64,000 nt of DNA from Caproicibacterium lactatifermentans (GTDB taxonomy: Bacteria > Bacillota > Clostridia > Oscillospirales > Acutalibacteraceae): assembly GCF_013315815.1 (NCBI RefSeq), contig NZ_CP046051.1:1673501-1737500 (forward strand). Reading direction: 5' to 3'. A program made the position numbers and the translations under genes. This document shows positions 22,080 to 23,780 of this stretch, piece by piece. The notes under the pieces are model-generated. The model ran no database searches. It had not been told where the DNA came from and was given only the letters and a program-made list of their open reading frames with translations. The first letter of the stretch is position 1, and every line of letters starts with the position of its first letter.

Positions 22080-22138
22080 AAAAAGAGAGCGGCCCCGGCG
22101 GCCGCATGGCGGCCTAACCGGAACCGTTCTCTTTTCGT
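22080..22138 (-). terminator. terminator of the large minus-strand RNA
   Basis: On the minus strand AAAAGAGAACGG...CCGCTCTCTTTTTGTG: a long GC-rich hairpin with inner GGCCGCC/GGCGGCC pairing and a T run. Confidence 0.75.
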
Positions 22139-22999
22139 TCCCTAACTTTGCAGAGCCAACGCTCTTTCGGTATTTTTACATCTACTGCATTGGTTTCACC
22201 CGGATGTTCTGTGTCCTTCGAGTACTCCAGGTGTTTTCTACTGCTTTATTGGAGACATCTCATCTTCTTATGCCCCGCAGGGCTGCCTGCTGAATCAGGC
22301 TTTATGTTGAGGCTGCCAATTCCAGTTCACTCTGAAGTGCTCGACCTTTTTGTACCGCTCGTAACAAGTATCCTTCCTTTCCAAGAAGATAAGGCTCTCA
22401 TCCTGTCTTTGGGAATCAAATCCTTTCTACTGGTCTGGTCACTTTCGGTTACCTTACGGGCTTCCAAAACATCTAAACACTGTACATTGGACTACATTCC
22501 CTCCGCTTATACGGTGCTGACGCATTTTGGCTGTCGGCGGTTACTTTTCAGATGACAGGCATTTACCGGATACCTGCTCCCGATTTCATCCGTCCGTATC
22601 GCTTTGTGCAGTCCGCACCAGCTTTTTTGCCGTTGCCCTTCGCCCGCCTACTTTGCCGTTTGCCGGTTTTGCGGCTGTCCGACTTTCTGCTGCGGCGTTA
22701 AACTTTATCGGCTCGGCCGCTGCACCCTGCAGCTGGCCGGAGGCCCTTACAGGGGACTCCTTGTGTCAGTTTTCAGCAGCGCAGCCGCACACAGACTGCA
22801 CTGCAAAACTGCCGATCGGTTCTTCGTCCATGGGACTCGCTCCTTTCCTCACTGGCACTACTCACAGTACCCGCTTTTTATACTTTCACAAGGAACCGGC
22901 TGACATTTCCGTTTTTCCGCCTCCCGTACTGCAGGTACCTTTTTTGGTGCCCACCTGCGGTCGGCTGTTGTGGTTCTGTCTGCCTGTTTCCTTGTTTCT
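22080..22999 (-). ncRNA. candidate large structured non-coding RNA (about 0.9 kb)
   Basis: Between malic enzyme and the DUF1292 gene lies a 0.9 kb stretch with its own near-consensus promoter (TTGACA-17-TATACT) and its own terminator on the minus strand, but no minus-strand frame of even 60 codons. The transcript is rich in hairpins and GAAA-type purine runs: GCAGGT...ACCTGC (22930-22960 region), CAGTTTT paired with AAAACTG, GCTGCA-GGG-TGCAGC, GCCTG-ATTCAG-CAGGC, GGTAACCGAAAGTGACC, and a long-range TTCCTTGTG/CACAAGGAG pair. These suggest a large ornate RNA such as the OLE, GOLLD or ROOL classes, or a new one. I could not match a named class. Confidence 0.6.
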
Positions 23000-23005
23000 G
23001 TCTAT

Positions 23006-23034
23006 AGTATAGTGGATTATGTGTAGATTGTCAA
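23006..23034 (-). promoter_or_regulatory. promoter of the large RNA
   Basis: Minus-strand TTGACA (23029-23034), 17 bases, TATACT (23006-23011). Near consensus and not followed by any ORF. Confidence 0.8.
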
Positions 23035-23250: not shown

Positions 23251-23568
23251 ATGAGCAACGAATTTGGCCCCGACCTGTTCACACTGGTCGATGAAGAAGG
23301 ACACGAGCATGAATTCGAGGTCCTGGATGTCATTGACAACGACGACGGCACGTTTTATGCGCTGCTGCCTACCTTTGAAAATGCCCAGGACAAGGTAAAC
23401 GACGAGGGAACTTACTACATCTTTCAAAGTTACGACCATGACGGTGAGCAGGAGCTGGCCGAAGTGGAAGATGATGCTCTGCTCAACAGTCTGGCTGCAC
23501 AGTTTGAAGAACACTTTGCAGATTTATACCCCGATGACGGGGCAGCTTTTGAGGATGAAAAAGACTAA
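23251..23568 (+). CDS. DUF1292 domain-containing protein
   Basis: A 105-residue very acidic protein of the DUF1292 family (YrzB-like), widespread in Firmicutes and of unknown function. The core reads DLFTLVDEEGHEHEFEVLDV, then YALLPT and YYIFQ. It is often encoded near ruvX in other Firmicutes, but here it stands apart, ahead of a 6S-like RNA. GTGGAGG before the ATG at 23251 decides the start over the longer upstream frame. Confidence 0.88.
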   Translation: MSNEFGPDLFTLVDEEGHEHEFEVLDVIDNDDGTFYALLPTFENAQDKVNDEGTYYIFQSYDHDGEQELAEVEDDALLNSLAAQFEEHFADLYPDDGAAFEDEKD

Positions 23569-23581
23569 TATTATGGGACGC

Positions 23582-23768
23582 TTCCTGCCCGGTACGCGGA
23601 CCTGTGCATAGAATAACCCTACAATTTTAAATCGGGAGTTTTGTTCCGGCGGTGGAACGCAGACCTCCCGGCCCTCGGGCCGGAAGCTGGGAGTACGAAG
23701 CCGCCGGGCGGACACCCACCTGTCTTTCGTAGGCAGGTTATTTCTGCACTTTACGGCCGGGCGGGCCT
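23582..23768 (+). ncRNA. ssrS: 6S-like RNA (SsrS)
   Basis: About 187 bases with no ORF. The ends pair as CCTGCCCGG (23584-23592) with CCGGGCGGG (23757-23765), closing a long rod. The 3' half has the ACACCCACCTG...CAGGT hairpin typical of 6S RNA, the 5' half a run of strong hairpins (CCGGCCC-TC-GGGCCGG). Size and shape fit 6S RNA, which binds RNA polymerase holoenzyme in stationary phase. A terminator follows at 23781. Identification is by eye. Confidence 0.58.
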
Positions 23769-23780
23769 TTGAAAATGATA

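What the first reader, a model, noticed from the sequence alone, without database searches (positions are those of the whole stretch)
22080..22999. Large orphan non-coding RNA candidate
A 0.9 kb minus-strand unit has a near-consensus promoter, a strong terminator, no minus-strand ORF of 60 codons, and many local plus at least one long-range helix (TTCCTTGTG with CACAAGGAG). Unannotated intergenic space of this size between core genes is unusual. The purine-rich GAAA joints suggest a folded RNA of the OLE/GOLLD/ROOL size class, which I could not match to a named class by eye.
Basis: partly seen in the sequence, partly recalled or inferred. Interest (0 to 1): 0.85.

Follow-up and report, generated by a model that had tools for sequence, protein, structure and literature searches.

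The report
Large RNA with two tiny ORFs
Relatives of one group of anaerobic clostridia carry, next to the same gene, an unnamed large folded RNA (about 0.5 to 1.4 kb) that also holds very short reading frames with ribosome-start signals, so it may be a regulatory RNA that ribosomes touch rather than a purely non-coding one.

Summary
Relatives exist across one family: I accepted 46 distinct loci (one is the window) by a match to the RNA's 5' core plus a DUF1292 gene divergent upstream. 6S RNA lies beside DUF1292 in the window and in 12 of 14 loci scanned. Length runs from about 500 to 1430 nt; the downstream gene varies and can face the other way, so it is unlikely to be a gene leader. One hairpin (P2) covaries strongly. 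'Non-coding' is doubtful: 45 of the 46 have a strong ribosome site plus AUG/GUG, and that frame is open for at least 16 codons in 45 of 45, against 24 and 19 in the other frames. It runs through P2 and mostly stops soon after. A second site downstream, found in 22 of 46 RNAs, meets a stop by the fourth codon in 20 of 24 cases (2 and 4 in other frames). Best reading: a large RNA whose fold is coupled to translation of a short ORF. Transcription, translation and function are untested.

The parts
23006..23034 (-). Promoter of the RNA (TTGACA, 17 nt, TATACT); start expected near 22999
   Evidence: loose match near DUF1292 in 38 of 38 loci
22080..23000 (-). Whole RNA, about 920 nt (CAGAAACA start to terminator)
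   Evidence: homologues
22977..22996 (-). P1, 5' strand (5' end of the RNA)
   Evidence: z -5.3; pairs with 22887-22906
22887..22906 (-).
22832..22847 (-). Extended ribosome-binding motif GAAAGGAGCGAGTCCC; pairs with the 16S 3' tail at -17.1 kcal/mol
22766..22831 (-). ORF1, 21 codons plus stop: MDEEPIGSFAVQSVCGCAAEN
   Evidence: open frame kept in 45 of 45 accepted RNAs that have the motif
22776..22804 (-). P2 hairpin, inside ORF1, covarying
22400..22427 (-). Middle motif GAAAGGATTTGATTCCC..., related by eye to the recurring GAAAGGAnUGAGUCC element
22182..22190 (-). 3' mini-ORF ATG CAG TAG
22196..22200 (-). GGTGA ribosome-site core of the 3' mini-ORF
22081..22135 (-). Intrinsic terminator hairpin with T tail
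23251..23568 (+). Divergent DUF1292 gene, the neighbour by which relatives were accepted
   Evidence: PF06949, E 5e-14
23579..23771 (+). 6S RNA after DUF1292
   Evidence: 12 of 14 loci

Best explanation
A large structured RNA of one bacterial family, made from its own promoter and terminator, that is also engaged by ribosomes. Near the 5' end a very strong ribosome site drives a short ORF (16-34 codons) that runs through the conserved hairpin P2 and in most RNAs ends soon after it. So a translating ribosome must melt P2, and P2 can form only when translation of ORF1 is low or stalled. Farther downstream a second ribosome site is followed almost at once by a stop (AUG-NNN-stop or one codon more). 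Most likely the RNA is a translation-coupled switch: ribosome traffic on ORF1, with a parked or terminating ribosome at the second site, sets its fold and stability and so its activity in trans. Shown by sequence: conservation, covariation of P2, the open ORF1 frame, the 16S-tail match, the downstream minimal ORF in about half of the RNAs. Inferred: that it is transcribed, that the ORFs are translated, that translation controls folding, and that it acts in trans.
For: Conserved gene: 46 distinct loci accepted. P2: 37 aligned matches (one is a second copy in L074), 10 of 15 pairs changed on both sides, covariation 0.480 against 0.196 shuffled and at most 0.059 when slid. ORF1: at least 16 sense codons open in 45 of 45, other frames 24 and 19; all members open in 17 of 17 groups (16 genus labels plus L018) against 5 and 2. 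Starts 49 AUG and 2 GUG of 51, a set that includes one duplicate and five loci without DUF1292 in view. 16S-tail pairing mean -19.0 against background -5.8, sd 3.1; the tail string occurs 3 times in the genome (its surroundings were not checked); the window's site, -17.1, is stronger than 36 of 37 long open stretches of the window, each given its best start, though some of these may not be genes. Stop relative to P2 end: median +7 nt; 25 of 35 rows between -2 and +13, 11 of them at +1 or +2. Downstream site: stop by the 4th codon in 20 of 24 against 2 and 4 in other frames; 14 of 24 are AUG-NNN-stop against 0 and 0; background 13.7% and 5.2%; all three stop codons are used.
Against: No transcript or ribosome data. 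The peptide is weakly conserved: the P2 loop GGUCUGUUGGGC is read in different frames in different species, and the synonymous share in ORF1 is only 0.291 against 0.177 and 0.187. The downstream motif was found in only 22 of 46 RNAs; its pattern was drawn up after seeing the sequences and tightened once (looser: 26 of 31 against 5 and 4; 20 of 24), the scan ran a fixed 1500 nt and so can pass the terminator, and in only 6 of 9 groups are all its instances short. Middle copies of the UGAGUCC motif lack an AUG, and UGAGUCC is more constant than a normal ribosome-site spacer, so part of it may be an RNA or protein contact. Accepted locus L138 lacks the start codon at its model hit. In 10 of 35 rows the ORF1 stop is not close to the P2 end, though some of these are misaligned. 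P2 was counted on an alignment fitted to its own structure. The species are related, so counts are not independent.
Confidence: 0.45

Rival explanations
1. A purely structural orphan RNA (in the style of OLE, ROOL or GOLLD). The GGUGAGUCCAAUGG motifs are RNA or protein contacts that merely resemble ribosome sites.
For: Strong fold, covariation, motif pieces repeated outside the 5' core, in part without AUG (31 RNAs: GAGTCC 36 seen against 4.0 expected, CCRATG 42 against 9.4), peptide hardly conserved.
Against: ORF1 frame bias (45 of 45), start codons only AUG or GUG, early stops of the downstream site mainly in frame 0 and spelled with different stop codons.
Confidence: 0.22
2. A messenger for a functional micro-peptide (ORF1) with a long structured 3' region.
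For: Strong ribosome site and open frame; some excess of synonymous change (0.291 against 0.177 and 0.187); recurring M-[GD]-x-E start of the peptide, by eye.
Against: Second half of the peptide shifts frame between species; much of the RNA, and the downstream mini-ORF, lie outside it.
Confidence: 0.15
3. A cis-acting leader or attenuator of the next gene (malic enzyme in the window).
For: Malic enzyme or thioredoxin reductase follows on the same strand in many loci; ORF1 plus hairpin resembles an attenuator.
Against: The next gene changes (malic enzyme, trxB, MatE) and is on the other strand in L060 (MotB) and in L084 and L087 (a shared ORF without Pfam match); a terminator-like site follows the core in most loci scanned.
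Confidence: 0.08
4. A CsrA-titrating RNA (GGA-rich).
For: Purine-rich AAAGG elements (103 seen against 61.8).
Against: No CsrA in 17 of 27 RNA-bearing genomes searched, the window's complete genome among them; GGA only z 2.4, AGGA z 1.1.
Confidence: 0.01

Closest known systems
OLE, ROOL and GOLLD large ornate RNAs
   Same: Large structured bacterial RNAs; PMC12286853 (passages) says their functions remain poorly understood and that OLE could sequester ribosomal protein RpsU.
   Different: No Rfam match at gathering level, nor in the window region at E up to 10; DUF1292 and 6S neighbours; embedded short ORFs.
Two-codon minigenes (LEE1 leader, axe-txe)
   Same: AUG-NNN-stop behind a ribosome site; ribosome binding at a strong site before a mini-ORF can protect a transcript (PMC8708949, start of abstract in a listing and passages).
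   Different: There they precede a gene; here the mini-ORF lies inside a terminated RNA, in the window about 50 nt before the terminator.
Leader peptides / uORFs with extended Shine-Dalgarno sites
   Same: Short ORF with an extended ribosome site whose translation regulates (PMC13009471, abstract and section list only).
   Different: No constant downstream gene.
Dual-function RNAs (RNAIII, SgrS; recalled)
   Same: Regulatory RNA plus short ORF (recalled, not tested).
   Different: Much larger than SgrS, and two ORFs; compared only through Rfam.
6S RNA
   Same: Neighbour gene; a global regulator of transcription (recalled).
   Different: A separate RNA; 6S itself is found at 23579-23771.

Membership tests
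OLE / ROOL / GOLLD (Rfam) | Covariance-model match | tested here: not met
   (window); only 6S reported in 14 relatives at gathering level
OLE / ROOL / GOLLD (Rfam) | RNA-only multimer | not testable with these tools
   needs cryo-EM or native gels
tmRNA | tmRNA model match at this locus, or tmRNA missing elsewhere | tested here: not met
   no match here; tmRNA elsewhere in the genome, 146.9 bits
RNase P RNA | Model match at this locus, or RNase P RNA missing elsewhere | tested here: not met
   no match here; found elsewhere, 251.7 bits
CsrA-titrating RNA | CsrA in the genome | tested here: not met
   none in own genome; present in 10 of 27
Two-codon minigene | Ribosome site, AUG, one codon, stop | tested here: met
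   window ATG CAG TAG; 14 of 24 motif instances
Two-codon minigene | Shown to be translated | not testable with these tools
   needs ribosome profiling or toeprinting
Dual-function RNA | Structured RNA with covariation | tested here: met
   (P2 only)
Dual-function RNA | Conserved ORF in the same RNA | tested here: met
   (open frame and start; peptide sequence only weakly kept)
Dual-function RNA | RNA acts on targets in trans | not testable with these tools
   needs deletion and pull-down
Cis leader | Constant co-directional downstream gene | tested here: not met

The most novel reading that the evidence does not exclude
A ribosome-binding counterpart of its neighbour 6S RNA: a large RNA that captures 30S subunits or initiating ribosomes through an extended 16S-tail match at its 5' end and a start-stop minigene downstream, and so tunes translation capacity, or senses it, when ribosomes become idle.
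Probability: 0.15. Interest if true: 0.92.

Novelty: new variant of a known kind. Interest (0 to 1): 0.72.

Why it matters
Large structured bacterial RNAs are few and mostly unexplained. This one has a recurring genomic address beside DUF1292 and 6S, variants with three-fold differences in length, and sequence signatures that point to the ribosome, so a function can be tested directly. If translation of a short ORF sets the fold of a large trans-acting RNA, that would be an unusual kind of translation sensor.

Tried and rejected
CsrA sponge: rejected. Housekeeping RNA (tmRNA, RNase P): found elsewhere in the genome. Cis leader: downstream gene not constant. Plus-strand (antisense) ORF of 161 aa at 22527-23012: synonymous share not consistently higher than in the other frames against five relatives, so no sign of a protein. 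Exact-motif search of the order: 3 of 394 genomes, too strict. Genome-collection scan with a looser pattern: 5 contigs, one new, L018.

Model R2 over the order: 56 of 394 genomes at E<=0.001. Of the loci returned I inspected 17 from outside the family; 0 of 17 had DUF1292 within about 1.5 kb. Six of them (L100, L104, L109, L111, L112, L115) look, by eye, like starts of one protein gene, so hits outside the family are not counted; this also shows that the 5' motif alone resembles an ordinary strong gene start.

Model R1 over the family: 112 of 398 at E<=0.1, many surely chance. Of 40 loci fetched 32 had DUF1292 and 8 (L073, L075, L076, L081, L083, L089, L090, L092) did not and were dropped. In one search I left out L056 and L079 (contig ends) and L021 and L058 (near duplicates) and added 18 loci. 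One search found DUF1292 at 47 of 52; one (L137) repeats L091, leaving 46; L034, L130, L136, L103 and L142 (no DUF1292 in the stretch held) were set aside. R2 on 40 further family genomes, chosen mostly for weak R1 hits, matched 17 of 40. I did not search for genomes that have DUF1292 and lack the RNA, so how constant the pairing is within the family is unknown.

One search includes a second, downstream copy in L074, and one search lists it too (stop 41 nt before the P2 end); L091 is misaligned there (-10). RNA ends were set by hand for some loci. Not used: tree building, peptide structure prediction, and the large protein database (the peptide is too short and variable).

Full report
What is there. 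The unit at 22080-23000 (minus) has a near-consensus promoter (TTGACA-17-TATACT), a strong intrinsic terminator, no inner minus ORF of 60 codons, and a fold well below shuffled sequences: -327.3 kcal/mol, z -7.6 against 20 shuffles, plus strand z -3.2. Rfam gives no match in it at gathering level, and only four weak matches at E up to 10, which I take as chance. The plus-strand ORF over it shows no clear coding signal.

Relatives. A DNA search matched 6 of 300 genomes of the family, the window's own included; one of these, G099, matched only the upstream area, and coding-like sequence follows there. A pattern scan of named genomes gave five contigs: UW_MP_ACUT4_1, UBA4871, Clostridium sp. D33t1, Anaeromassilibacillus senegalensis and UC5.1-1E11. 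The genome searches give family labels without names (f1); NCBI places A. senegalensis in Acutalibacteraceae and UBA4871 in Oscillospiraceae, so the family name is my inference. Measured from the CAGAAACA start to the terminator, lengths are 921 (window), 744, 770, 1427, 1424 and 1424 nt; the shortest relatives are near 500 nt. A covariance model of the 5' core (R1, four sequences) then found more. I accepted those with a DUF1292 gene divergent upstream: 38, 47 of 52 in the final set, of which one is a duplicate. The link to DUF1292 is thus a criterion of acceptance; it was first seen in relatives found by DNA alone. The 45 accepted RNAs with the 5' motif fall in 17 groups: 16 genus labels plus L018, whose label is unknown. 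This is a lower bound, from one short model and a part of its hits.

Setting. 6S RNA lies on the other side of DUF1292 in the window and in 12 of 14 loci scanned; the two without are L020, which holds too little sequence on that side, and L070. The gene after the RNA changes: malic enzyme, thioredoxin reductase, MatE, and on the opposite strand MotB in L060. I therefore treat it as a free-standing transcription unit and not as a leader.

Structure. P2 is supported by covariation: over 37 matches 96.2% of cells pair, 10 of 15 pairs have changes on both sides, score 0.480 against 0.196 shuffled (0 of 500 as high) and at most 0.059 when slid by 1-3 columns; 32 sequences without L074 give 0.506. 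The alignment was fitted to the model, which favours the structure. The small hairpin GUCC-NAU-GGNC around the start codon has no pair with a change on both sides, so it is weakly supported. At the 5' end, the first nucleotides pair with a stretch beginning 40-58 nt before the ribosome site in six of six window-type RNAs (z -2.0 to -5.3), but over all 36 RNAs tested the mean z is -1.3 and 15 are below -1.64 (mononucleotide shuffles).

Translation signals. A very constant part of the RNA reads GAAAGGGGUGAGUCCAAUGG in many relatives (window: GAAAGGAGCGAGUCCCAUGG). The 22 nt before the start pair with the 16S 3' tail at -19.0 kcal/mol on average against -5.8 (sd 3.1) for other stretches of the same RNAs; the tail string occurs three times in the window's genome. 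For the window the value is -17.1; 36 of 37 long open stretches of the window, each given its best start, are weaker. The start is AUG in 49 and GUG in 2 of 51. The frame that follows is open for at least 16 sense codons in 45 of 45 accepted RNAs, against 24 and 19 of 45 in the other two frames, and all members are open in 17 of 17 groups against 5 and 2. ORF1 runs through P2: over 35 rows its stop begins a median of 7 nt after the end of P2, 25 rows between -2 and +13, 11 of them at +1 or +2; three rows stop before the end (by 2 nt, one misaligned, and the downstream copy of L074), and eight stop 19-43 nt after it. The peptide is only weakly kept (synonymous share 0.291 against 0.177 and 0.187), and the P2 loop is read in different frames in different species.

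The downstream minimal ORF. A related motif recurs downstream. With the pattern GG[UA][GA][AG]NNCC[ACG][AG]UG, which does not look at what follows, I found 24 instances in 22 of 46 RNAs (9 groups: 8 genus labels plus L018). In frame, counting the start as codon 1, 20 of 24 meet a stop by codon 4, against 2 and 4 in the other frames; 14 of 24 are AUG-NNN-stop against 0 and 0; other AUG/GUG in these stretches give 13.7% and 5.2% of 1054. A looser pattern on the unfiltered set gave 26 of 31 against 5 and 4. In 6 of 9 groups all instances stop early, in 9 of 9 at least one does. The second codon of the 14 varies (CAG, UAC, UAU, UUU, UUC, AGA) and UAA, UGA and UAG all occur, which is hard to explain by RNA structure alone. 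Many lie some 50-130 nt before the RNA end used, others mid-RNA. The window has ATG CAG TAG. The pattern was made after looking at the sequences, and 24 of 46 RNAs lack a match; variants outside it exist but are not counted.

Reading. I conclude that this is a large structured RNA with embedded translation signals. My mechanism is inference: a ribosome on ORF1 and P2 exclude each other, so translation traffic could set the fold. The nearest precedents are leader peptides with extended Shine-Dalgarno sites (PMC13009471, abstract and section list) and two-codon minigenes (PMC8708949, passages). OLE, ROOL and GOLLD are like it in size and in lacking a well-understood function (PMC12286853, passages), but no membership was found.

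Literature. Seven searches showed, as far as the listed titles and abstract starts go, no paper on this RNA. The main text of PMC8040213 (passages by term) does not contain Acutalibacter or Ruminococcaceae; its supplements could not be read here. So an unnamed entry there, or a paper outside the held library, cannot be excluded.

Noticed in passing
L116-L120, L126, L127, L129: In another family of the order (label f13) units share the GAAAGGnnGUGAGUCC-AUG start. In the five read (L099, L110, L101, L106, L113) it lies behind a promoter-like site and opens an ORF of 17-18 codons (for example MGTEESCFQQQTRCMYW, MVSEIEQQFRTARLAGAH). They lie divergent from an asparaginase-like or an alcohol-dehydrogenase-like gene (names by eye). 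They may be a second RNA class or distant kin.
   Followed up: partly
window 23251-23771 and relatives: DUF1292 gene followed by 6S RNA recurs in this family (12 of 14 loci; also L125).
   Followed up: partly
L074, about 320 and 1242 nt from the DUF1292 start: The 5' core model matches a second time about 900 nt downstream (22.4 bits). Much weaker matches, each near chance (E 0.07-0.6), lie downstream in L018, L020, L021, L022, L053 and L067, as if the RNA had two related parts.
   Followed up: partly
L020, L021, L022, middle part of the RNA: The long form (1.42 kb) seems, by eye, to contain several similar blocks (around GCCUGUAA.GCUGGAU), which may be internal duplications that lengthened the RNA.
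   Followed up: no
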